This document shows positions 28,728-41,676 of a stretch of 64,000 nucleotides of DNA, piece by piece (the stretch's first letter is position 1; each line of letters starts with the position of its first letter). Where the stretch lies: NCBI RefSeq assembly GCF_000275865.1, contig NZ_CM001555.1, positions 1,075,706-1,139,705 of the forward strand. Reading direction: 5' to 3'. Made by a program: the position numbers and the translations under genes. The stretch comes from Methanofollis liminatans DSM 4140. Lineage in GTDB: Archaea > Halobacteriota > Methanomicrobia > Methanomicrobiales > Methanofollaceae. The notes beneath the pieces were generated by a model. That model made no database searches. It was not told where the DNA came from and saw only the letters and a program-made list of their open reading frames with translations.

Positions 28728-30068
28728 ATGGCGATCCACCCGATAGACTACCGGTACGGCACCCCTGAGATGAAGGCCGTCTGGGGAGAGGAGAACCGGT
28801 TCAGGTGCATTGTGGCGGCGGAGGTCGCCCTTGCGCAGGCCGAGGCGGCATGCGGCGTGATCCCGGCCGATGCCGCTGAAACGATCGCGCGGTGCGCCAG
28901 GATGGCCACCCTTGCGCGGGCGAACGAGATCGAGGCCGAGATCAACCACGATATGATGGCGGTCGTGAAGGCGGTCACCGAGGTCTGCGGCGACGCGGGG
29001 CGCTGGATCCATTTCGGCGCCACCTCGAACGATATCCTGGACACGGCGACCGGTCTGCAGATGAAGGCGGCGATGGACCTTATCGAGGCGAAACTCCGGG
29101 CTCTCCTCGCCGTCCTCCTCCGCCGGGCCGGGGAAACAACACACCTCGTCTGCGTGGGGCGCACCCACGGGCAGCACGGCGTACCCACGACCTACGGGCT
29201 GCGGTTTGCGATCTGGGCGAGTGAGGTCGGCAGGCACATCGAGCGCCTCGGCCAGATGCGGCCGCGGGTGGCGGTCGGGCAGCTCACCGGGGCCGTCGGG
29301 ACGCAGGCCGCCCTGGGGGCGAAGGGGCTTGAGGTCCAGCCCGCGATGATGGCGAACCTCGGCCTCTCCCCGGTCGATGTCTCGAACCAGATCATCGCCC
29401 GCGACCGCTATGCCGAGTATATCATGTTCCTCGCGAACGTGGCGACGACCCTCGACAAGATAGGGGTCGAGATCAGGTCCCTCCAGCGGACCGAGATCGC
29501 CGAGGTCGAGGAGGCCTTCGGGAAGAAGCAGGTCGGGTCGTCGACGATGCCGCACAAGAGGAACCCGATCAAGAGCGAGCAGGTCTGCGGGCTCGCCAGG
29601 ATCGTCAGGGCGATGGTCGAGCCGGCGTTGCAGAACAACACTCTCTGGGATGAGCGCGATCTCACCAACTCCTCCTGCGAACGGGTGGTCTTTCCCGAGG
29701 CATCGGTGCTCGCCGACCATATCCTCGCCCTGATGGTGAAGGTGCTGGAAGGGCTGACGATCCGCGAGGAGAACGTCAGGAAGAACCTGGACCTCCTCCA
29801 CGGCGTCAACCTCGCCGAGTCGGTGATGATCGAGCTGACGAAGCGCGGCATGGGCCGGCAGGAGGCCCACGAGGCCGTCAGAGTCGCCAGCATGACTGCC
29901 CTCGCCGAGAGGCGGCCGATCGCCGGTGTGCTCGGGGAGGACCCGGCGGTCGCCGCCGTCCTTGACGGTGCAGAGATCGCCGCCCTCCTCGACCCGGAGA
30001 ATTATATCGGGACGGCGGTGGAGCAGGTCGAGCGGGTGATCGCGAAACTCGCGCCGCTCGCGGCCTGA
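28728..30068 (+). CDS. purB: Adenylosuccinate lyase
   Basis: Purine-synthesis lyase acting on both SAICAR and adenylosuccinate, 446 residues. The fumarase/aspartase superfamily signature GSSTMPHKRNPIKSE is present with the mobile catalytic loop Ser; HFGATSNDILDTAT contains the conserved His/Ser region and GRTHGQHGVPTTYG the third conserved block. The T-run TCTTTTTT just after the stop may terminate transcription. No operon partner downstream. Confidence 0.97.
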   Translation: MAIHPIDYRYGTPEMKAVWGEENRFRCIVAAEVALAQAEAACGVIPADAAETIARCARMATLARANEIEAEINHDMMAVVKAVTEVCGDAGRWIHFGATSNDILDTATGLQMKAAMDLIEAKLRALLAVLLRRAGETTHLVCVGRTHGQHGVPTTYGLRFAIWASEVGRHIERLGQMRPRVAVGQLTGAVGTQAALGAKGLEVQPAMMANLGLSPVDVSNQIIARDRYAEYIMFLANVATTLDKIGVEIRSLQRTEIAEVEEAFGKKQVGSSTMPHKRNPIKSEQVCGLARIVRAMVEPALQNNTLWDERDLTNSSCERVVFPEASVLADHILALMVKVLEGLTIREENVRKNLDLLHGVNLAESVMIELTKRGMGRQEAHEAVRVASMTALAERRPIAGVLGEDPAVAAVLDGAEIAALLDPENYIGTAVEQVERVIAKLAPLAA

Positions 30069-31085: not shown

Positions 31086-31402
31086 CGGTACTGAATGGCA
31101 CAGGATAGAGTTAGCCTTTTGCGGTCCTCCATTGCGTGCCTTGGTGGTGGTTCTGCACCCCTGATGTACTCAGGATAGAGTCATGAGTCACGTCTCTGGA
31201 GCACATTTCCGGATGGCACTTCAGCCGGGCGATTTCATGAGTTAATCACTTGTATTATACATTTCGGCAAATAATAACCTCTTTATCCTACTTTCGCCAG
31301 AAAGTACTTCATTGGCCATTTCGGGTAATTAGAATGAATCCATTTACTCTTGGGGATCTATCGCCTGTTCTTTTCTGCCTGAACTGGGTGGAGTCGCATA
31401 TA

Positions 31403-33499
31403 ATGATACGAGACCATTCCAGACCTGACAGTCGGTGGCTGCGCTGGCTTGCCGCAACGCTCCTCCTGCTCTTTCTCTTCAGTATCGCCCCGGCTTCGGC
31501 CGATCCCCTCGAACAAACGCGCCACGTCTTCATCAACGTCTCGAACGCCGACGGAGTGAAGTACGATCTCGACGGCGCCACGTACGGCGGGCCGAACAAC
31601 ACCTATTATATCAAGGCCGACGGCGGTGGCCTGAACGAGCTCCACATCACCGCTGATGCGGACAACGCCTATGGCCAGGTGACGACGAGCAGCGACCAGT
31701 CCGGTGTCTATTATGTTTCCAACACCGGCGGCCGCGGCTTTGACGATGACATCCTCCTCCTCCTGGCCGTGAACGGCACGGTCCCGGACGACTTTGCCGT
31801 GCACGTCAAGACGAGCGGCTACACCTGGACGCCCTCCTCGGTCACCAATCAGGTCCCGACGAACTACGCCTATATCGAGGGTGCGGTGAACGAGACCTTC
31901 ACGAAGGAGGATTTCCTGTACGGCCCGCAGACCTGGAAGCCCGGCCCGGGCAACGCCGAGCCCTATCTCCCACCCGGCCTGCCCCTGTACGAGTACCAGG
32001 ACGTCACCGACACGAGCAACACCTTCAGCCTGATGTTCATCGACCTTGACGTCGGGAACATGTACCCCTCGAAGTTCGGCACCATGCTCACCGACAACGG
32101 CGGTGCAAAGGTGGAGTACTCCTTCGAGAACCTGGAGACCTTCGCCGCCTTCAACGTCTACGGCTGGTGCCTCGCCGCCAACCAGGGCCAGGGCATTTCA
32201 TGGACCAACCGGGTGAACGCCGCCGGCGAGACAGTCGTCGGCACGAGCGGCTATGCCGTCGTCGGCATCCCGCCGGTGCTGACCTCGATCGAGGTCACGC
32301 CTGCGACCGCCGAGGTGGAGATCGGCACCTCGATGCAGTTTGCCGCCGCCGCCCTCGACCAGGACGACCGTACGATGAGCGACATCGCCATCGCCTGGTC
32401 GAGTTCTGACGAGACCGTGGGGACGGTGAACGCCACCGGCACCTTCACCGCCCTCGCTGCCGGCACCACCACGCTCACCGCCTCGAATGGCACGGTCTCG
32501 GGTACGGCCGAGGCGACCGTCAACGCCGCGCCCTCCGGTCCCCGGCCCCTCCCTGACTACAACAATGTTTTCTTCAAAGTCGCCAACGACGCCGGCGTGA
32601 AGTACAACGCCTTCGGGAACAACACCTACAACGTCCGGTTCGAAGGCTATGACCGCGGCCTCAACGCCCTGCACATATCCACCGACCCGGCAGTAAACTT
32701 CGGCCAGGTGACGGTCTCTGAAAACCAGAGCGGCACCTTCTATGCGACCGACTCGGGCGGTAAGGGCTATGAGGACGAGATCCTCCTCATGGTCGCCGTG
32801 AACGGCACGATCTCCGACGACTTCAGGCTGCACATCACCGCCGACGGCTACACCTGGACTCCGAACCCAGCGAGCAACCAGCCGCCGTCTCTTGACAACG
32901 TCACCTACCAGCCCGTCTCCCTCGACGAGATCTTCACCAAAGACGACTTCATTTACGGCCCGCAGATCTGGAAGCCGACCGGCAACGGTTTCGACTACCC
33001 GATCCATTTCGGCCAGGACATGAGCGACACGGCGAACACCTTCCAGGTGATGTTCATCGACCTGAACGCCGGCGTGCTCAGACCGAACGCTGACCTCGAG
33101 AACCGGGGTGCGGTGCGGATCAACTACACCGTCGAGAACCTCGACACCTTTGCGGCCTTCAACGTCTACGGATACTGCCAGAACTCAAACAACGGCGACG
33201 AGATGGTCGCCTGGACCAACGCCGTCCTGGCGCCCAAGGTGACGAGCGGCTACTCGGTCATCGGTGCCGGCCGGGCCGTCCTCTTAGGCGACGCCAACGA
33301 CGACGGCACGGTCAACCAGGCCGACACCCTGCGGGTGCTCAAGCAGATCGTCGGCCTCTCCTCAAAGCCCTCGGCCGACACCGAACTGTTCACGAAGACC
33401 GACGTCCACCGGAACGGGATGATCGAAGTAGGAGACGCCCTCTTCATCGCCCAGTACAACGTCGGGCTGCGGGATGCCTGGTTTGCATTGAGGGAATAA
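31403..33499 (+). CDS. Secreted surface protein with duplicated domain, Big2 and dockerin-like tail
   Basis: A 698-residue exported protein. A signal peptide (RWLRWLAATLLLLFLFS.., likely cut after ASA-33) follows ATG 31403; frames extending further upstream would place charged sequence before it. Residues about 41-305 and 380-620 are two copies of one unnamed domain sharing FINV/FKVANDAGVKY, GQVT..NQSGxFY..GG.G, LHVAVNGT.PDDF..H, YTWTP and NTFxxMFIDL. Between them is a Big2-like Ig domain (ITSIEVTPATAEVEIGTSMQF). The C-terminus is a dockerin-like pair of Ca-binding loops, GDANDDGTVNQADTLRVLK and KTDVHRNGMIEVGDALF. No membrane anchor at the end. Many N-glycosylation sequons (NGT, NVS, NDT). 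A role in the cell envelope is likely but undefined. Confidence 0.82.
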   Translation: MIRDHSRPDSRWLRWLAATLLLLFLFSIAPASADPLEQTRHVFINVSNADGVKYDLDGATYGGPNNTYYIKADGGGLNELHITADADNAYGQVTTSSDQSGVYYVSNTGGRGFDDDILLLLAVNGTVPDDFAVHVKTSGYTWTPSSVTNQVPTNYAYIEGAVNETFTKEDFLYGPQTWKPGPGNAEPYLPPGLPLYEYQDVTDTSNTFSLMFIDLDVGNMYPSKFGTMLTDNGGAKVEYSFENLETFAAFNVYGWCLAANQGQGISWTNRVNAAGETVVGTSGYAVVGIPPVLTSIEVTPATAEVEIGTSMQFAAAALDQDDRTMSDIAIAWSSSDETVGTVNATGTFTALAAGTTTLTASNGTVSGTAEATVNAAPSGPRPLPDYNNVFFKVANDAGVKYNAFGNNTYNVRFEGYDRGLNALHISTDPAVNFGQVTVSENQSGTFYATDSGGKGYEDEILLMVAVNGTISDDFRLHITADGYTWTPNPASNQPPSLDNVTYQPVSLDEIFTKDDFIYGPQIWKPTGNGFDYPIHFGQDMSDTANTFQVMFIDLNAGVLRPNADLENRGAVRINYTVENLDTFAAFNVYGYCQNSNNGDEMVAWTNAVLAPKVTSGYSVIGAGRAVLLGDANDDGTVNQADTLRVLKQIVGLSSKPSADTELFTKTDVHRNGMIEVGDALFIAQYNVGLRDAWFALRE

Positions 33500-33753
33500 T
33501 TTCTTTTTACAGCCCGAATGCCTTCCTCGGGCGCCTGATCAGAATGAACTCTCTATGGTTGTCTGCACCATGAAAATGAGAGAAAAATGCATGGACTTCT
33601 TGTCGGAAAGGTTAACTGCCTCCTCCACGTGAAGAAGGACAATATCACCATCCTCCTCTACGCCGGCATTCCGATCACCCTCGATAGCTATGAACACACG
33701 ATTATTGTCACCTGATCTGGAGGGTACACCTGGAAGACCTCTTTCTTCTGCCG

Positions 33754-34739
33754 GTGAGCGCCACATCTTCGGGCATCTGCCTGTTCAGAGAGGAAACCAT
33801 CTGTTTCGTCAACCCGGCCTTCACCGCACTTTTCGGCTATACGCCGGAGGAGGCCGTCGGGAACCTGCCGGTATCGGACATCGTTCATCCCGACGACCGG
33901 GAGCGGTTCAGGCGCACGACGGAGCAGGTCCTCTCCGGCGCCTCCATCTCCGTGCATGAGAGGTACGAGGGCATCAGGAAGGACGGCAGCAGCCTCTGCC
34001 TTGAATATACCGGGGCCGGGACGCGTTACCACGGGAAGCCCGCTGCCGTCGGGTTGTTCCTGGACATGGCCGCACAGAAGAAGGTCGAAGACGCCCTGCG
34101 CGGGAGCGAGGAGAGGTTCAGGGCTATCTTCGACCGGGTGAACGACGTCATCTTCCTCGTCGAGTTGACCCCGGACAACCGGCCGGGCAGGCTGATCGAG
34201 GTGAACCGGGCCGCCTGCACCAGCCTGCACTATCAGAGGGGGAAACTCCTCAACATGCCTGTAGGTAAGGTCAAGGAGCCGGGTGGAGGCACGGTGCTGG
34301 CTGAGATCATGGAGCGCCTCCTCCTGTACGGCACTGCAAAATACGAAGCCGTAGAGCTGCGAAAGGACGGCACGCCCCTTCCGGTGGAGTTGAACAGCCA
34401 CCTCTGCGAGATCGACGGACGATCGGCGATCCTGGCCGTGGCCCGCGACATCTCGGCGAGAAAAGAGTGGCAGAGTATGGAAGCCGAAGCGTTCAGCAGA
34501 TCGAGGAGAACCTGGAGCAGTTCGCCATCCTCAACGACCATATTAAATACCCCCTTCAGGTGATCCCGGGGCTTGCAGACCTGTACGACGAGACGGTCGC
34601 TGAAAAGATCCGCATCGAAACCGGAAAGATCGATGCCATCATCAGCAGCCTTGACCAGGGCTGGCTCAGGTCCGAAAAGATCAGGCGGGTGCTTCGCCGG
34701 CACTACGGCCTGTTCCAGAACAATGCTGGGCAGCACTGA
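33754..34739 (+). pseudogene. Frameshifted PAS-domain sensor (histidine-kinase-like)
   Basis: Two PAS domains are read in one frame from about 33754: CLFREETICFVNPAFTALFGY, then FDRVNDVIFLVELTPDNRPG and VNRAACTSLHYQRG, each ending in the usual PAC segment (VARDISARKEW). At about 34492 the frame must drop by one base: after ..MEAEA the sense continues as QQIEENLEQFAILNDHIKYP in the frame that stops at 34739. The latter matches the C-terminal helices with DHI-x-x-PLQVI seen in many Methanomicrobiales PAS sensors, which lack an ATPase domain. No good start with ribosome binding site is visible before 33754, and a stop at 33691 closes the frame, so the 5' end also looks damaged. A 42-codon frame at 33587-33715 may be another remnant. 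A sequencing error is the alternative. Confidence 0.7.
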
Positions 34740-34843: not shown

Positions 34844-35851
34844 ATGCCTGACCTCGCCCTGATCGGATGGGTCGAGTGCGACGGCCGGCGCCTCTCCGAA
34901 GATGAGGTGCGTGTCGCCCTTTCAGAGGATCCTTACTCCGCCCTGCGGTTCGGCGGCGAGTTTTCGTTCACGTACGGTGAGTGGCGGGCGCGCGACCACT
35001 TCGGGATCGCCCCCGGCGACGGCCCGGCCGGAACGCTCACCCGCGACGGTGCGGTCGTCGGCCGCGTGGACCCCGGCTACCCGGCCGGCGACCTCGAGGC
35101 GGCGATTGTCGAGGCGGTGGCGATCAGGGCAGTGGACGGCGCCGCCGTCGCTCTCTCCGGTGGGGTGGACTCGGCCCTTGTCGCCGCCCTCGCGCGCCTC
35201 CCCTGTGTCGTCGTCGGCTTGGAGGGATCGCACGATCTGGTGCGCGCCCTCGCCCTCGCCGAAGTGCTGGGCCTCTCCTGCGAGGCGGTGACCGTCACCG
35301 AACAGGAGGTTGAGGCGGCGCTGCGGGCGGTGGTCGGTGTGCTGGGTGCCCCGAACCCGGTCGACGCCTCCATCGCAACGACCGAATACTTTGTCGCCCG
35401 CTGGGCCGGGGAGCGCGGCTACCGCCGGATCCTGGCCGGACAGGGGGCAGACGAACTCTTCGGCGGCTACGCGCGCTACCTGGAGAGCCCTGACCTTGCG
35501 GCCTCGCTTGCGGCGGGCGTCGACGATATCCCGCGGCAGGTTGCCCGCGACGGCGCCGTCGCCTCTCTCTATGGTACCGCGTTCTCCCTCCCATACCTGG
35601 ATCTGCGCGTCGTGGCGGCGGCCCGCGCCATCCCTCCTGCTGAGAAGGTGTGCGGCGGGGTCAGGAAATTGCCCCTCAGAGAGGTCGCAGAACGGCATCT
35701 GCCCCTCGAATTCGCCAGCGGAGAGAAGAAGGCGATGCAGTACGGCAGCGGGATCTGGAAGGCGATCGGGCACCTCTCCAGTAAAAATGGTTATAAAAAG
35801 TCGGTACAAGGGTACTTAACTGACATGGGTAGGGACATGCATGGTCACTGA
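34844..35851 (+). CDS. Asparagine synthase-like amidotransferase without glutaminase cysteine
   Basis: A 335-residue protein whose C-terminal two thirds is an asparagine-synthase ATP-pyrophosphatase domain: VALSGGVDSALVAALA (PP-loop), AGQGADELFGGYARY, SLPYLDLRVVAAA and KLPLREVAERHLP. The first 100 residues keep only the tail of the class II glutaminase domain (FGGEFSF, RARDHFGIAP) and lack the N-terminal Cys, so glutamine hydrolysis is not possible from this chain. It overlaps gatC by 11 bases, linking it to Asp/Glu-tRNA amidation. ATG 34844 is preferred because GGAGGG precedes it and similarity begins there; ATG 34811 is also in frame. Confidence 0.82.
   Translation: MPDLALIGWVECDGRRLSEDEVRVALSEDPYSALRFGGEFSFTYGEWRARDHFGIAPGDGPAGTLTRDGAVVGRVDPGYPAGDLEAAIVEAVAIRAVDGAAVALSGGVDSALVAALARLPCVVVGLEGSHDLVRALALAEVLGLSCEAVTVTEQEVEAALRAVVGVLGAPNPVDASIATTEYFVARWAGERGYRRILAGQGADELFGGYARYLESPDLAASLAAGVDDIPRQVARDGAVASLYGTAFSLPYLDLRVVAAARAIPPAEKVCGGVRKLPLREVAERHLPLEFASGEKKAMQYGSGIWKAIGHLSSKNGYKKSVQGYLTDMGRDMHGH
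35789..35800 (+). promoter_or_regulatory. Internal box A for gatCAB
   Basis: GGTTATAAAAAG inside the 3' end of the asparagine-synthase-like gene, about 50 bases before gatC, is a near-consensus TATA element. Initiation near 35820 would allow gatCAB expression independent of the upstream gene. Confidence 0.45.
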
Positions 35852-36110
35852 ATCAGACGTAGCACATATTGCAATACTTGCAGATATTGGAATAGGCGAC
35901 GAAGAACTCGCCGAATTTACCGGGCAGTTCAACGCCATCCTCGAATATTTCGATCTCCTCGATCAGGTCGAGGAGAGCGGGCGGCCTGCGGCGGTAACGA
36001 CGAACATCTTCAGGGACGACGCCGTCGTCCCGTCCCTCTCCCTCGACGCCGTCCTTGAAAACGCCGGTGAGTCTGAGGCCGGCTATATCCGCGCCCCGAA
36101 GGTGATGTGA
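35841..36110 (+). CDS. gatC: Aspartyl/glutamyl-tRNA amidotransferase subunit C
   Basis: The 89-residue linker subunit that joins GatA and GatB. It has the family pattern VAHIAILADIGIGDEELAEFTGQF in a typical helical pair and the C-terminal extended tail with RAPKVM. Starts within the preceding gene (11-base overlap); gatA begins at the last base of its stop codon (TGATG). Confidence 0.93.
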   Translation: MVTESDVAHIAILADIGIGDEELAEFTGQFNAILEYFDLLDQVEESGRPAAVTTNIFRDDAVVPSLSLDAVLENAGESEAGYIRAPKVM

Positions 36111-37411
36111 TGGGCTCGATCACCTTTGATGCGGAAGACCGCTGGAACGCCTTCATCACCCTCTGCCGGGAGGCCGACCACGGCGACGGCCCCCTGGCTG
36201 GCGTCCTGGTGGCGGTCAAGGACAACATCTCGACGGCCGGTGTCCAGACTACCTGCGGGTCGCGGATCCTCCAGGGCTATATCCCCCCGTATGACGCCCA
36301 CGTCGTCGAACTGCTCAAGGCCGCCGGCGCCGCTATCGTCGGCAAAACGAACATGGACGAGTTCGGCATGGGCACCACCACCGAATCGAGTGCATTCGGA
36401 CCGACCACCAACCCGGTCGACACCGCGCGCGTCCCCGGCGGATCTTCGGGCGGGAGCGCCGCCGCCGTCGCTGCCGGTATGGTGCCGATGGCCCTCGGCA
36501 CCGACACCGGCGGCTCGATCCGCTGCCCCGCGGCCTTCTGCGGGATCGTCGGGCTCAAGCCCACCTACGGGCGGGTCTCCCGGTACGGCCTCATCGCCTA
36601 TGCGAACTCACTCGAGGGCATCGGCCCGATGGCCCGGAACGTGGCTGATGTATCCAGCCTCTTCTCGGTGATCGCCGGTCCTGACGCCCGCGACGCCACC
36701 TCCATCGACCGCCCATACTCCCACACGCCCTCGTCCGATGGAATCGCGGGGCTCCGTATCGGCGTCCCGGCCGAGTTCTTCGGCGCCGGCGTCGACCCGG
36801 GCGTCGCAGAGAAGGTCAGGTCGGCGATCGACTCTCTCGCCGACCTCGGCGCCGAGATCGTCGAGTGTTCGATGCCGAGCATGGCCTTTGCCCTCGCCGC
36901 CTACTATGTCACCTGCACCTCAGAGGCCTCCTCGAACCTCGCCCGGTTCGACGGCATCCGCTACGGCCCCGACATCGAGTCGAAGCGCTCGTGGCACGAT
37001 GCCTACCAGGAACACCGCCGGGAGCACTTCGGCAAAGAGGTGCGCCGCCGGATCATGCTCGGCACCTTCGCCCTCTCGGCCGGTTACTACGGCAAGTACT
37101 ATGCAAAGGCGCAGGCGGCCCGCAAGAGCGTCGGTGAAGATTTCGCCCGCCTGTTTGCGGATGTCGACGTTATCGCCGGCCCGACCATGCCTACGACGGC
37201 CTTCGCCCTCGGCGAGAAGACCGCCGACCCCCTCTCGATGTACCTCGCCGACATCCTCACCGTCCCGGCCAACCTCGCCGGCGTCCCGGCGATCTCGGTG
37301 CCCTGCGGCAGCGTGGACGGTCTGCCCGTCGGGCTGCAGCTCATCGGCAGGCATTGCGAGGAGGAGCGGATCATCGATACTGCCTATGCCTACGAGGAGG
37401 TGCGGCGATGA
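36110..37411 (+). CDS. gatA: Aspartyl/glutamyl-tRNA amidotransferase subunit A
   Basis: Amidase-signature glutaminase of the complex, 433 residues. The catalytic Lys is in [12 protein letters not shown], and [15 protein letters not shown] plus [11 protein letters not shown] carry the cis-Ser and nucleophile Ser. It is about 40-50 residues shorter than bacterial GatA, missing mostly N-terminal sequence, which is usual for this archaeal branch. Start is ATG 36110 within the gatC stop (TGATG); a GTG at 36107 is less likely. Amidates misacylated Asp-tRNA-Asn, since archaea use GatDE for Glu-tRNA-Gln. Confidence 0.95.
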
Positions 37412-38844
37412 GCGAACACACCGACGTGATCATCGGGCTCGAGATCCATTGCCAGCTGAACACAGAGACCAAACTCTTCTGCGGGTGCTCGACCGACTAC
37501 AAGACCGACGGCCCGAATACCCATGTCTGCCCGGTCTGCCTCGGCCTGCCCGGCGCCCTCCCCATGATTAACCGGAAGGCCGTCGAGTACGGTCTCTGCG
37601 TCGCAAAGGCCCTCAACCTCGAGGTGCCCGAAGAGTCCGAATTCGCACGGAAGAACTACTTCTATCCCGACCTCCCGAAGGGCTACCAGATCACGATGTA
37701 CGACCGCCCACTCGCCGTCTGGGGCTACCTGGAGATCGAGGGCGACGAAGGCGAGAAGAAGATCCGGATCACCCGCATCCACCTCGAAGAAGACCCGGGG
37801 AGGCTGGTGCACAAGGCCGGCGCCGGCCATGTCGCCTATACCCTGGTCGACTACAACCGCTCTGGCATCCCCCTCATCGAGATCGTCACCGAGCCCGACC
37901 TTCGGTCGCCGAAGGAGGCCCGGCGGTTCCTCAACAAACTCCGCGCCACCCTCGAGTACCTCGGCGTCTATGACGGCGAGCGCGAGGGCGGTCTGCGCGT
38001 GGACGCCAACATCTCGATCCGCGGCTCAGAGCGGGTCGAGGTGAAGAACATCTCCTCATATAAGGGGGTCGAGAAGGCGCTCACCTTCGAGATCACCCGC
38101 CAGAAGAACCTGATCAGGCGCGGCCTGCGGGTCGAGCGCGAGACCCGCCACTTCCAGGAGGGCCGCGGCATCACCTCCTCGGCCAGGTCCAAGGAGACGG
38201 AGAACGACTACCGCTACTTCCCCGAACCGGACCTGCGGCCCCTCAGGGTAAAGGATTGGGTCGAGGCGATCGCCCTCCCCGAACTCCCTGACGCCCGGCG
38301 CGACCGCTTCATGGCGACCTACGGGATCTCCCTCAACCACGCCCGCACCCTCACCGGCGACCTCAGGCTCGCCGAGTTCTACGAGGCGCTCGCTGCAAAG
38401 ACCGATCCGGCGCTTGCCGCCACCTGGACGGCCGACACCCTGCTCGGCGAACTCAACTACCGGGACATGCCGGTGACGACGGTGCCTCTCGACCACTTCG
38501 CCGACCTCGTCGGCCTGGTCGGCCGCGGCGAGGTCACCGACCGGGTCGCCATCGATGTCCTGCGGGCGCTGCTTGACGCCGTCATCGCCGGCGAGACGCC
38601 GGTGACGCCCTCGGAGTACGTGAAGCAGCACAACCTTGGCAAGGGCGCCGCTGACGCCTTTGCCGCCGTCATCGACGAGGTGATCGCCGAAAACCCGCAG
38701 GCGGTCGCCGATTACCGCGAGGGGAAGGGCGCGGCACTCAACTTCCTGGTCGGCCAGGTGATGAAGAAAACACGGGGCAAGGCAGATCCGAAAGAGATCA
38801 CTCCTCTAATCGCCGCCCGTATCACCCCGGAGGAGGGAGCCTGA
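37408..38844 (+). CDS. gatB: Aspartyl/glutamyl-tRNA amidotransferase subunit B
   Basis: Kinase/transamidase subunit, 478 residues. The N-terminal cradle contains VIIGLEIHCQLNT and LFCGCS, with a cysteine pair repeated in HVCPVCLGLPGALP for the zinc site; KNYFYPDLPKGYQI is the catalytic signature. The C-terminal helical and YqeY-like tail (GKGAADAFAAVIDEV, TRGKADPKEI) binds the tRNA elbow. ATG 37408 overlaps the gatA stop by 4 bases. Part of gatCAB followed directly by topA. Confidence 0.96.
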   Translation: MSEHTDVIIGLEIHCQLNTETKLFCGCSTDYKTDGPNTHVCPVCLGLPGALPMINRKAVEYGLCVAKALNLEVPEESEFARKNYFYPDLPKGYQITMYDRPLAVWGYLEIEGDEGEKKIRITRIHLEEDPGRLVHKAGAGHVAYTLVDYNRSGIPLIEIVTEPDLRSPKEARRFLNKLRATLEYLGVYDGEREGGLRVDANISIRGSERVEVKNISSYKGVEKALTFEITRQKNLIRRGLRVERETRHFQEGRGITSSARSKETENDYRYFPEPDLRPLRVKDWVEAIALPELPDARRDRFMATYGISLNHARTLTGDLRLAEFYEALAAKTDPALAATWTADTLLGELNYRDMPVTTVPLDHFADLVGLVGRGEVTDRVAIDVLRALLDAVIAGETPVTPSEYVKQHNLGKGAADAFAAVIDEVIAENPQAVADYREGKGAALNFLVGQVMKKTRGKADPKEITPLIAARITPEEGA

Positions 38845-38847
38845 GCC

Positions 38848-41676
38848 GTGCACCTGATAGTCGCAGAGAAGAACATCTCGGCCCGGCGGATCGCCGCCAT
38901 GCTTGCGGGAAACAACCACGTCACGAATAAAAAAGAGGGCGGGGTCGACACCTACGCCTTCGATGACACCGTCCTCGTCGGCCTGAAGGGGCACGTCGTC
39001 GAGGTCGATTTCGTAGAGGGCTACACGAACTGGCGGAGCGAGGAGCGCCCTCCCCGCTCCCTCATCGACGCCGGGATCGTCAAGCGCCCGACCGAAAAGC
39101 GCATCGTCTCTCTTCTTCAGAAACTCGCGAAAAAGGCCGACCTCGTCACCATCGCCACCGATTTCGATACCGAGGGGGAGTTGATCGGCAAGGAGGCCTA
39201 CGAACTCGTCAGGGCGGTGAACAAGGGCGTGCGGATCCTGCGGGCCAGGTTCTCGGCGATCACCCCGCAGGAGATCAAGCGGGCCTTCTCCGAACTGACC
39301 GAACTCGACTTCGCCCTCGCCGCCGCCGGGGAGTCGCGCCAGATCATCGACCTGATGTGGGGAGCGTCGCTGACCCGCTTCATCTCGATTGCGGCACGGC
39401 GCGGGGGCGCGAACATCCTCTCGGTGGGCCGGGTGCAGAGCCCGACCCTTGCGATGATCGCAGACCGGGAAAAGGAGATCGAGTCCTTCGTCCCGCAGAA
39501 ATACTGGATGCTCACCCTCGACACGAAAAAAGACGGCTCGCCTCTTGAACTCCGCCACACCCACGGCCGGTTCGTCGATCATGACGACGCCCTCGCCGCC
39601 AGGAAACGGACGACAGAACCGCTCACCGTCACCGAGGTGAAGGAGGGCGTCAAGAACGACCGCGCCCCCACACCCTTCGATACCACCTCCCTCCTCGTCG
39701 CCGCAGGACGGCTCGGCTTTTCCGCGGCAAATGCGATGCGGGTCGCAGAAGACCTCTACATGAACGGTTTCATCTCGTACCCGAGGACTGACAACACCGT
39801 CTACCCGGCAAGCCTCAACCTCGACGAGGTGCTCGGCGTGCTGAAGGCCACCGCGTTCTCGGGAGATGTCGCATGGGTGGAGCGGCACAGGCGTCCAGAA
39901 CCCACCCGCGGCAAAAAATCGAGCACCGACCACCCGCCCATCCACCCGACCGGGGCGGCGACGCCTGCACAGCTCGGCGAAGAGCGCTGGAAACTCTATG
40001 AACTTGTGGTGCGGCGGTTCCTTGCCACCCTCTCGCCGGACGCGAGATGGCTGACCATGAAAGTGAACTTCGACGCCGGGGGCGAACCCTATACGGTCAC
40101 CGGCGGGCAGCTCAAAGAGGAGGGGTGGCGGCGCGTCTACCCGTACAGCGAGGCGGCCGAACGGCTGATCCCGGCCTGCACCGTCGGCGAACGTCTCCCG
40201 ATCCTGGGTGTGAACCTCGAGGAGAAAGAGACCCAGCCTCCACCCCGCTACACCCAGAGCCGGCTGATCCAGACGATGGAAGAGCTGGGCCTGGGCACAA
40301 AGAGCACCCGCCACGAGGTGATCGGAAAACTCGTTTCGCGGCGGTACGTCCAGGGCAATCCCCTTCGGCCGACGCTCGTGGGGCGGGCGGTCGTCGAGTC
40401 CCTTGAAAAACACGCCGACACGATCACCAGGCCGGACATGACCCGCACCCTTGAGGCGTCCATGCAGCAGATCAAGGAGAGCACACGGACGCGCGACGAT
40501 GTCGTCGGCGAGTCGCGCGCCATGCTCCACTCGGTCTTCGACGATCTCGAAGCGCATGAAGAGCAGATCGGTGCGGAGATCATGGACCGGACCGTCGAGG
40601 AGCGGACGGTCGGCCCCTGCCCGGTCTGCGGGAAAGACCTCCAGATCAGACAGGTCCACGGCGCCTCCCAGTTCATCGGCTGTTCCGGGTATCCTGAATG
40701 CACCTTCAATATCAGCCTTCCCGGGGTGCAGTGGGGCAAGGCAATCCGCCTGGATCAGGTCTGCGATAAACACCGCCTCAACCATATCAGGCTGATCAGG
40801 AAGGGTGCGCGGCCATGGGACATCGGCTGCCCCCTCTGCTCGCATATCGAATCAAATGCCGCGACGCTCAGGCTGATCCCCCATATGACCGATGCCCTGC
40901 TTGCACGCCTGCATGCGAGCCACATGTACACGGTCCCTGACATCGTCCGCGCGTCGGCGGCAGACCTTGCCGCCCACCTCTCGATCGGGTCAGAAGAGGC
41001 GGAGAAACTTGTGCAGGAGGCGAACGACGTCCTCGATCTCCTGAGGCGCCGGTCTGAACTGAAGAAGTTCATCCGCGCCGAAGTCTCGCCGCGCCGCGGC
41101 CGGAGCCATGCGAAGATCGCACAGAAACTGGCCGCAGCAGGGATCGACGACATAGCGGCACTCGGATCTGCCCGTGTGGATGTCCTGAAGGAGGCCGGTC
41201 TCTCAGACGAGGAGACCCAGGGCCTCAGGGCAAAGGCACAGGCAATCCGGAGCGAACGGCGGCTGCGCGAGGCCGGTCTTCCGGCGGTGAGCATCAAGAA
41301 GTACCTCGAGGCCGGGATCGCCGGCCCCGAAGACTTCGCCACCCTTCACCCGGCCTATATCAGCGCGAAGAGCGGGGTGCGGGTGGAGACCGTCTGCAAA
41401 CATGCAGAGGTCGCCTGCAGCAGCGCCGGCCTCGACACTCCGCCGAAGATCACCCAGAAACGCCTTGAGAAAGGGCGGGAAGAACTGCTTGCCGTTCCGG
41501 GCATCGGAGAACCGACGCTTGAAAAACTCTACCGGGCTGGTATCGTCGACGCCGCAAGTCTTGCCGCCGCCGACCCCGAACGGGCTTCGGCGGCTTCAGG
41601 CATCCCGGCGGCAAAGATCCGCGCCTGCATTGCATCTATATCGGCGGAAGACAAAAAAGAAAGAGTACGCACATGA
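38848..41676 (+). CDS. topA: DNA topoisomerase I (type IA) with long C-terminal tail
   Basis: Relaxes negatively supercoiled DNA by cutting one strand. The 942-residue protein begins with GTG (MHLIVAEKNISARRI), has Toprim acidic motif TDFDTEGE, and the active-site region GFISYPRTDNTVYP with the catalytic Tyr. Two zinc-finger-like clusters follow near residues 590-670 (CPVCGKDL..CSGYPEC, CDKH..CPLCSH). Beyond them about 270 residues contain repeated helix-hairpin-helix-like units (IDDIAALGSARVDVLKEAGL, VPGIGEPTLEKLYRAGI), an unusually long tail. Starts 3 bases after gatB. No intein. Confidence 0.94.
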   Translation: MHLIVAEKNISARRIAAMLAGNNHVTNKKEGGVDTYAFDDTVLVGLKGHVVEVDFVEGYTNWRSEERPPRSLIDAGIVKRPTEKRIVSLLQKLAKKADLVTIATDFDTEGELIGKEAYELVRAVNKGVRILRARFSAITPQEIKRAFSELTELDFALAAAGESRQIIDLMWGASLTRFISIAARRGGANILSVGRVQSPTLAMIADREKEIESFVPQKYWMLTLDTKKDGSPLELRHTHGRFVDHDDALAARKRTTEPLTVTEVKEGVKNDRAPTPFDTTSLLVAAGRLGFSAANAMRVAEDLYMNGFISYPRTDNTVYPASLNLDEVLGVLKATAFSGDVAWVERHRRPEPTRGKKSSTDHPPIHPTGAATPAQLGEERWKLYELVVRRFLATLSPDARWLTMKVNFDAGGEPYTVTGGQLKEEGWRRVYPYSEAAERLIPACTVGERLPILGVNLEEKETQPPPRYTQSRLIQTMEELGLGTKSTRHEVIGKLVSRRYVQGNPLRPTLVGRAVVESLEKHADTITRPDMTRTLEASMQQIKESTRTRDDVVGESRAMLHSVFDDLEAHEEQIGAEIMDRTVEERTVGPCPVCGKDLQIRQVHGASQFIGCSGYPECTFNISLPGVQWGKAIRLDQVCDKHRLNHIRLIRKGARPWDIGCPLCSHIESNAATLRLIPHMTDALLARLHASHMYTVPDIVRASAADLAAHLSIGSEEAEKLVQEANDVLDLLRRRSELKKFIRAEVSPRRGRSHAKIAQKLAAAGIDDIAALGSARVDVLKEAGLSDEETQGLRAKAQAIRSERRLREAGLPAVSIKKYLEAGIAGPEDFATLHPAYISAKSGVRVETVCKHAEVACSSAGLDTPPKITQKRLEKGREELLAVPGIGEPTLEKLYRAGIVDAASLAAADPERASAASGIPAAKIRACIASISAEDKKERVRT

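What the first reader, a model, noticed from the sequence alone, without database searches (positions are those of the whole stretch)
34844..35851. Asparagine-synthase-like protein without glutaminase cysteine joined to gatCAB
The chain keeps the ATP-pyrophosphatase domain but lacks the N-terminal Cys and most of the glutaminase domain, and overlaps gatC by 11 bases. It might use free ammonia, borrow ammonia from GatA, or modify a different substrate. Free-Asn synthesis next to tRNA-dependent Asn synthesis would be redundant, so another role is possible.
Basis: partly seen in the sequence, partly recalled or inferred. Interest (0 to 1): 0.5.

Follow-up and report, generated by a model that had tools for sequence, protein, structure and literature searches.

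The report
Archaeal asparagine-synthetase-like enzyme beside gatCAB
This gene encodes a shortened relative of asparagine synthetase, from a separate family found in many archaea, that keeps its ATP site but has lost its glutamine-splitting part and a residue thought to be needed to make asparagine, so it may add ammonia to some other molecule.

Summary
The 335-aa protein (34844-35851) has an intact AsnB-type ATP-pyrophosphatase domain, lacks the N-terminal Cys and AsnB residues 1-67, and overlaps gatC by 11 bases. It belongs to an archaeal clade separate from canonical AsnB: in 0 of 94 members aligned is the AsnB Glu348 carboxylate kept. The order (purB)-asnL-gatC-gatA-gatB-topA recurs in several lineages, and some relatives are fused to the diphthamide ligase Dph6 (a fusion already in print in 2012). 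The window's genome shows no AsnRS over cut-off and no other intact PF00733 AsnB; AsnA was not searched. Best reading: an ammonia-dependent amidating enzyme whose substrate is a carboxylate other than free aspartate, probably in the translation machinery. The boldest candidate is carboxymethyl-uridine 34 of tRNA, whose amidating enzyme was called unknown in 2019; this is unproven, and an Elp3 co-occurrence test gave no support. An ordinary asparagine synthetase is not excluded: two full-length relatives pass the asparagine-synthase cut-off. The 11-base overlap is weak evidence for a GatCAB link, since the end of asnL is conserved as DNA and looks like a gatC promoter.

The parts
34844..35851 (+). 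asnL: AsnB-like ATP-pyrophosphatase gene, 335 aa
   Evidence: PF00733 E 6.1e-35; TIGR01536 102.7 bits, below its 267.1 cut-off; AF2 model pLDDT 95.9, Z 32.7 to 1ct9
34844..35083 (+). remnant of the class II glutaminase domain (residues 1-80) without the catalytic Cys
   Evidence: model aligns from AsnB residue 68; pLDDT of its ten-residue blocks 94-98
35156..35173 (+). PP-loop SGGVDS (residues 105-110)
   Evidence: S, G, G, D and S invariant in the 41 sequences of A1
35438..35470 (+). GQGADELFGGY (residues 199-209); Gln at the place of AsnB Glu348
   Evidence: Q in 81 of 88 rows, a carboxylate in 0 of 94 archaeal rows
35726..35752 (+). KKAMQYGSG signature (residues 295-303); first Lys = AsnB Lys449
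35786..35840 (+). last codons of asnL conserved at DNA level before gatC; TATA-like TTATAAAA at 35791-35798; probable gatC promoter
   Evidence: kept before gatC in G009 and G015, where asnL lies 1.4 and 0.7 kb upstream
35841..36110 (+). gatC
   Evidence: TIGR00135 60.5 bits over 47.1 cut-off
36107..37411 (+). gatA
   Evidence: TIGR00132 588.7 bits over 481.1
37408..38844 (+). gatB
   Evidence: TIGR00133 536.5 bits over 314.8
38848..41676 (+). topA, recurrent next gene
   Evidence: PF01131; synteny
28728..30068 (+). purB, recurrent upstream neighbour of asnL in other genomes
   Evidence: PF00206/PF10397; near asnL in other archaea

Best explanation
AsnL belongs to an archaeal family of AsnB-fold enzymes distinct from canonical asparagine synthetase, and probably is an amidating enzyme. 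Shown: fold, intact ATP-pyrophosphatase residues, lost glutaminase, separate clade, no carboxylate at position 348, recurrent linkage to gatCAB, topA and purB, and Dph6 fusions elsewhere. Inferred: ATP adenylates a carboxylate, and free ammonia attacks the acyl-AMP to give an amide. The carboxylate is not free aspartate but a group on the translation apparatus. The most likely single candidate is the carboxymethyl group that Elp3 puts on wobble uridine 34 of tRNA (cm5U to ncm5U, perhaps on to the nitrile cnm5U). The confidence below is for a non-aspartate, translation-linked amidating enzyme; for cm5U alone I give about 0.2.
For: Position 348: E or D in 12 of 14 readable canonical AsnB rows (15 rows, one gap), 0 of 94 archaeal rows. 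From memory, mutagenesis of E. coli AsnB showed that aspartyl-AMP formation needs a carboxylate there; no such paper was found in the library. D351, E352, K429 and K449 are kept in all readable rows of the 88 outside the Dph6-linked branch. Canonical rows stand apart at 100/100 in the careful tree and 99 in the quick one. No AsnRS over cut-off in the window's genome, nor in 36 of 48 AsnL-bearing genomes searched. gatC starts within 100 bases downstream in 71 of 97 order genomes held. Six of 36 genomes searched carry a Dph6 fusion, and there the fused domain is the only Dph6 over cut-off. Precedents: an AS-like enzyme turns a carboxylate into a nitrile and also accepts ammonia (PMC13060819, preprint, passages); Listeria AsnB amidates diaminopimelate in a species predicted to make Asn on tRNA (PMC8554201, passages). 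The cm5U-to-ncm5U enzyme was 'not known in any organism' in 2019 (PMC6412123, passages).
Against: Two full-length relatives pass the asparagine-synthase equivalog cut-off (L145 300.1 and L142 280.5 bits against 267.1). Elp3 does not discriminate: over cut-off in 28 of 30 genomes without a strong AsnL hit and in 36 of 39 with one (my grouping); the three exceptions among the latter are MAGs of unknown completeness. AsnL is missing from whole groups (four f16 genomes, eleven f21, others), so it cannot be essential for cm5U use. The purB linkage is not explained. Gln at 348 also occurs in one of 14 readable canonical rows. S. acidocaldarius has no PF00733 match (control), but I did not verify its U34 state, so this weighs little. 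No activity was measured; no RNA-binding domain was found by Pfam.
Confidence: 0.45

Rival explanations
1. It is an ordinary ammonia-dependent asparagine synthetase that supplies free asparagine; the Gln at 348 is tolerated.
For: Closest solved structure is AsnB; ATP residues and Lys449 intact; two full-length relatives pass the asparagine-synthase cut-off; the neighbours purB and gatCAB both deal with Asp nitrogen (own knowledge); two f14 genomes have AsnRS over cut-off and a full-length gene with MCG.
Against: No carboxylate at position 348 in 94 rows; 36 of 48 AsnL-bearing genomes have no AsnRS over cut-off; six of the 12 with AsnRS also carry shorter AsnRS-like frames of about 300-346 aa that could be the AsnRS-derived archaeal asparagine synthetase (identity not checked).
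Confidence: 0.3
2. It works in diphthamide synthesis with Dph6, as ammonia supplier or partner ligase.
For: Dph6 fusion in six of 36 genomes; adjacent genes in G216, G222 and Methanococcoides; convergent neighbour in an Altiarchaeota contig; the fusion was proposed as an NH3 source in PMC3541065 (passages).
Against: The window protein has no glutaminase, so it cannot draw ammonia from Gln; Dph6 is separate there; nine of 40 AsnL-bearing genomes have no Dph6 over cut-off, five of them no match at all and two only just below it, with MAG completeness unknown; the Dph6-linked proteins form one side branch.
Confidence: 0.1
3. It acts on a purine-related carboxylate together with PurB.
For: purB lies near asnL in 14 of 63 archaeal loci of the genome scan, including Bathyarchaeota and Thaumarchaeota, and in 14 of 40 order loci, in six f3 loci with a gap of 0 to -15 bases between the matches.
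Against: I know of no missing amidation step in the archaeal purine route that it would fill (own knowledge); the orientation of the pair varies between lineages.
Confidence: 0.07
4. It is a GatCAB partner that takes ammonia from GatA.
For: Recurrent gene order with gatC.
Against: gatC not found beside it in many other lineages; gatC seems to have its own promoter; GatCAB needs no such partner elsewhere (own knowledge).
Confidence: 0.05

Closest known systems
E. coli AsnB (1ct9), glutamine-dependent asparagine synthetase
   Same: Fold of the synthetase domain (Z 32.7, 26% identity); PP-loop, Asp351, Glu352, Lys429, Lys449
   Different: No Cys1 and no residues 1-67; Glu348 replaced by Gln; KKAMQY in place of KEQFSD; far below the TIGR01536 cut-off
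AsnB-Dph6 fusion proteins (noted for Methanohalophilus and Methanosalsum in PMC3541065, passages)
   Same: Same archaeal clade, with Gln453 and Tyr454
   Different: The window protein has no Dph6 domain and no glutaminase; the Dph6-linked branch carries S, L, N or A at 348
PesC nitrile synthetase (PMC13060819, passages)
   Same: AS-like enzyme acting on a non-aspartate carboxylate; ammonia accepted
   Different: Peptide substrate, bacterial; not compared by sequence here
Eukaryotic YML096W / ASNSD1
   Same: AsnB-like proteins without a proven function (PMC3023687, PMC3854871, PMC9140057, passages); a C-terminal motif like KKAMQYG is recalled from memory
   Different: Not compared by sequence here
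Beta-lactam and carbapenam synthetases
   Same: Fold (Z 25.8-30.8); Glu348 also replaced in these enzymes (Tyr, recalled)
   Different: Intramolecular amide formation in antibiotic pathways

Membership tests
AsnB asparagine synthetase | N-terminal catalytic Cys and full class II glutaminase | tested here: not met
AsnB asparagine synthetase | ATP-pyrophosphatase domain PF00733 with PP-loop and Lys449 | tested here: met
AsnB asparagine synthetase | carboxylate at position 348 | tested here: not met
   (Gln); its need for activity is recalled, not read
AsnB asparagine synthetase | score over the curated equivalog cut-off TIGR01536 | tested here: not met
   102.7 against 267.1 bits; but the full-length relatives L145 and L142 pass (300.1, 280.5)
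AsnB asparagine synthetase | aspartate to asparagine activity | not testable with these tools
   needs an assay
archaeal AsnB-like clade described here | GQGADELFGGY-type motif and KKAxQY, inside the archaeal clade | tested here: met
   70 of 94 rows match GQG[AS]DE[LM]F[GAC]GY, 84 of 94 KK[AS]xQY
Dph6 diphthine-ammonia ligase | PF01902 domain | tested here: not met
   only PF00733 found; separate Dph6 in the genome
GatCAB subunit | obligate part of the GatCAB locus | tested here: inconclusive
   71 of 97 order genomes with gatC within 100 bases, 7 farther, 19 not found in the stretch held
cm5U34 amidating enzyme | loss of ncm5U/cnm5U on deletion | not testable with these tools
   Elp3 co-occurrence was uninformative
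AsnRS-derived archaeal asparagine synthetase (AS-AR) | class II synthetase core | tested here: not met
   only PF00733 found

The most novel reading that the evidence does not exclude
The archaeal AsnL family, perhaps with eukaryotic ASNSD1/YML096W as its counterpart, is the missing enzyme that amidates carboxymethyl-uridine 34 of tRNA to ncm5U, and in archaea may carry it on to the nitrile cnm5U by a second adenylation, as the AS-like PesC does on a peptide.
Probability: 0.2. Interest if true: 0.9.

Novelty: new variant of a known kind. Interest (0 to 1): 0.55.

Why it matters
A family found in many archaea and usually read as asparagine synthetase may do something else. The printed question of what the Asn-synthetase-like domain fused to Dph6 does (reviewer comment in PMC3541065, passages) becomes testable. 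So does the missing cm5U-to-ncm5U enzyme (PMC6412123, PMC3110198, passages).

Tried and rejected
Rejected or uninformative: (1) Chance ORF or broken AsnB: refuted by conservation. (2) A second AsnB in the genome: of eight PF00733 matches two are pieces of this gene; the others read by eye as LarE-, TtuA/Ncs6-, GuaA-, QueC- and another PP-loop protein, plus one decayed fragment with stops, L003. (3) Elp3 co-occurrence: Elp3 is over cut-off in 64 of 69 genomes. (4) Dph6 co-occurrence: 31 of 40 over cut-off, again little power. (5) Internal stops in some g18 genes: in L080 the stop lies near the very end of the gene and the reading runs past it; L056 was not worked out. (6) Sigma-70 and terminator scan: nothing found, and not suited to archaea. 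(8) The fold search lists AsnB, beta-lactam, carbapenam and TsnB9 chains first; this shows fold only. (9) Paper searches. Among their listings I saw one paper on the Dph6 fusion (PMC3541065) and none that gives a function for this gene family; only open-licence papers are held, and I read passages, not whole papers.

Rows left out: the order-wide linkage count covers 97 genomes whose loci I held, some of them fetched because their matches were weak; distances run from the end of the match, not the stop codon. Before, 15 named loci were dropped as short, redundant or cut, and 13 order sequences stood for the order; before, 33 of the 109 rows were dropped for size, long branches or redundancy, and its bootstrap had not settled. 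A1 holds 41 of the fetched sequences, A2 20.

Full report
What is there. The window lies on a single 2.48-Mb contig of an archaeon, very probably of the Methanomicrobiales: named loci with the same short gene beside gatCAB are titled Methanolinea, Methanoculleus, Methanospirillaceae and Methanomicrobiales. The gene at 34844-35851 encodes 335 aa with one Pfam domain, Asn_synthase PF00733 (E 6.1e-35). It scores 102.7 bits against a cut-off of 267.1 for the asparagine synthase equivalog TIGR01536. The next genes are gatC, gatA, gatB and topA. The 11-base overlap with gatC is real.

Anatomy. The AlphaFold model is confident (pLDDT 95.9) and aligns with E. coli AsnB from its residue 68 onward (Z 32.7). 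The first 67 residues with the catalytic Cys are absent; about 80 residues of the glutaminase half-domain remain folded in the model. The PP-loop and the ATP-site residues are intact.

Conservation. 183 of 199 genomes of the order match it, 131 of 132 of the high-quality ones. Across the phylum 387 of 390 genomes match at E 1e-3, but by my count of the table 27 of these are weak (E above 1e-13, probably other PP-loop proteins), which leaves about 360 strong ones. I count 63 as this archaeal family, with record titles such as Methanocaldococcus, Methanobrevibacter, Thermococcus, Bathyarchaeota, Thaumarchaeota, Thermoplasmata, Heimdall- and Hodarchaeota; the other 17 are canonical AsnB by tree or motif.

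A separate clade. In a 109-row tree canonical AsnB (15 rows) and the archaeal family (94 rows) separate with SH-aLRT 99. In a careful 76-row tree the nine canonical rows kept stand apart at 100/100, though its bootstrap had not settled. At AsnB position 348 the canonical rows have E (10), D (2), Q (1), Y (1) and one gap; 88 archaeal rows have Q (81), N (4), S (3), and the six rows of the Dph6-linked branch S, L, N or A. Position 453 is Gln in all 92 readable archaeal rows and 454 is Tyr in 91 of them, Phe in one; no canonical row has either. That a carboxylate at 348 is needed for aspartyl-AMP is recalled, not read (one search found no paper). Against this, two full-length relatives pass the asparagine-synthase cut-off.

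Glutaminase. Relatives in f14, f31 and f8 (g84, g90) keep MCG and a full glutaminase-like domain; haloarchaeal ones keep a part, and others (L141, L153, L154, L157) start close to the synthetase domain. So the glutaminase looks repeatedly lost while the synthetase part stays.

Neighbours. gatC begins within 100 bases of the end of the match in 71 of 97 order genomes held (31 genera), farther in seven, and was not found in 19, of which 14 belong to f6/g16; flanks were short in many of these. The order asnL-gatC-gatA-gatB-topA also stands in loci of f14, f12, f11, f19, f24 and f28, with purB in front in f7, f11, f24 and f28. purB is near the gene in 14 of 63 archaeal scan loci, gatC or gatA in nine, dph6 in two, and purB in 14 of 40 order loci, most with about 3 kb upstream. 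The eight f21 loci read hold a gene of the type of this order without a gatCAB gene in the stretch held, which suggests transfer.

The overlap. The end of asnL is conserved as DNA: in four relatives of the genus all 14 comparable conserved residues of the 15-codon tail use the same codon, against 57-60% elsewhere in the gene; in four other-family genomes 8-11 of 10-12, against 49-51%. In G009 and G015 the same stretch stands before gatC although asnL ends 1.4 and 0.7 kb upstream. It is not seen in the f14 genome G206. It holds TTATAAAA. I read it as a gatC promoter inside asnL; the overlap therefore says little about a shared complex.

Dph6. In six of 36 genomes the AsnB-like protein continues into a Dph6 domain (255-288 bits, cut-off 197.3), the only Dph6 over cut-off in those genomes. 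Such a fusion is in print, with the open question of what the Asn-synthetase-like domain does (PMC3541065, passages). The window's genome has a separate Dph6.

Free asparagine. The genome has a non-discriminating AspRS (614 bits) and no AsnRS over cut-off. Of 48 AsnL-bearing genomes searched, 36 have none over cut-off and 12 do. An asparagine synthetase would thus feed no asparaginyl-tRNA ligase in most of those searched.

Mechanism. Adenylation of a carboxylate by the PP-loop domain and attack by free ammonia follows from the fold and the lost glutaminase; the substrate is inferred. I favour a translation-linked carboxylate. cm5U34 is the boldest candidate: its amidating enzyme was unknown in 2019 (PMC6412123, passages) and in yeast in 2011 (PMC3110198, passages); the nitrile cnm5U is reported from Methanocaldococcus and Thermococcus (PMC7668247, PMC11323500, passages), genera with family members in the scan; an AS-like enzyme is now known to make nitriles and to accept ammonia (PMC13060819, passages). 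Against it: Elp3 is over cut-off in 28 of 30 genomes without a strong AsnL hit, and the purB link is unexplained.

Verdict. Observation confirmed; the 'another role' idea gains support, the GatA-ammonia idea does not. New variant of the AsnB-type enzymes.

Noticed in passing
35786-35840: DNA-level conservation and a TATA-like TTATAAAA inside the end of asnL, probably the gatC promoter
   Followed up: partly
L003 (own genome C1:798439-798693): Decayed Asn_synthase fragment with stops beside what reads by eye as a flippase gene
   Followed up: no
L133-L140: asnL of this order's type in eight f21 loci without gatCAB neighbours, while eleven other f21 genomes have no strong match: likely gene transfer
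   Followed up: partly
L317, L318: Elp3 and Dph6 lie about 5 kb apart on one contig in both the Heimdall- and the Hodarchaeota genome; stretches fetched, not read
   Followed up: no
L169 (G210): The start of a fused Dph6 part looks degenerate (NSGIES where SSGKDS is usual) and a separate Dph6 is present
   Followed up: no
31250-34563: Between purB and asnL the window carries a Big_2/dockerin protein and a PAS protein, so the purB-asnL pair seen elsewhere is split here
   Followed up: no
L081 (G040): asnL matches in two frames that overlap, as if frameshifted
   Followed up: no
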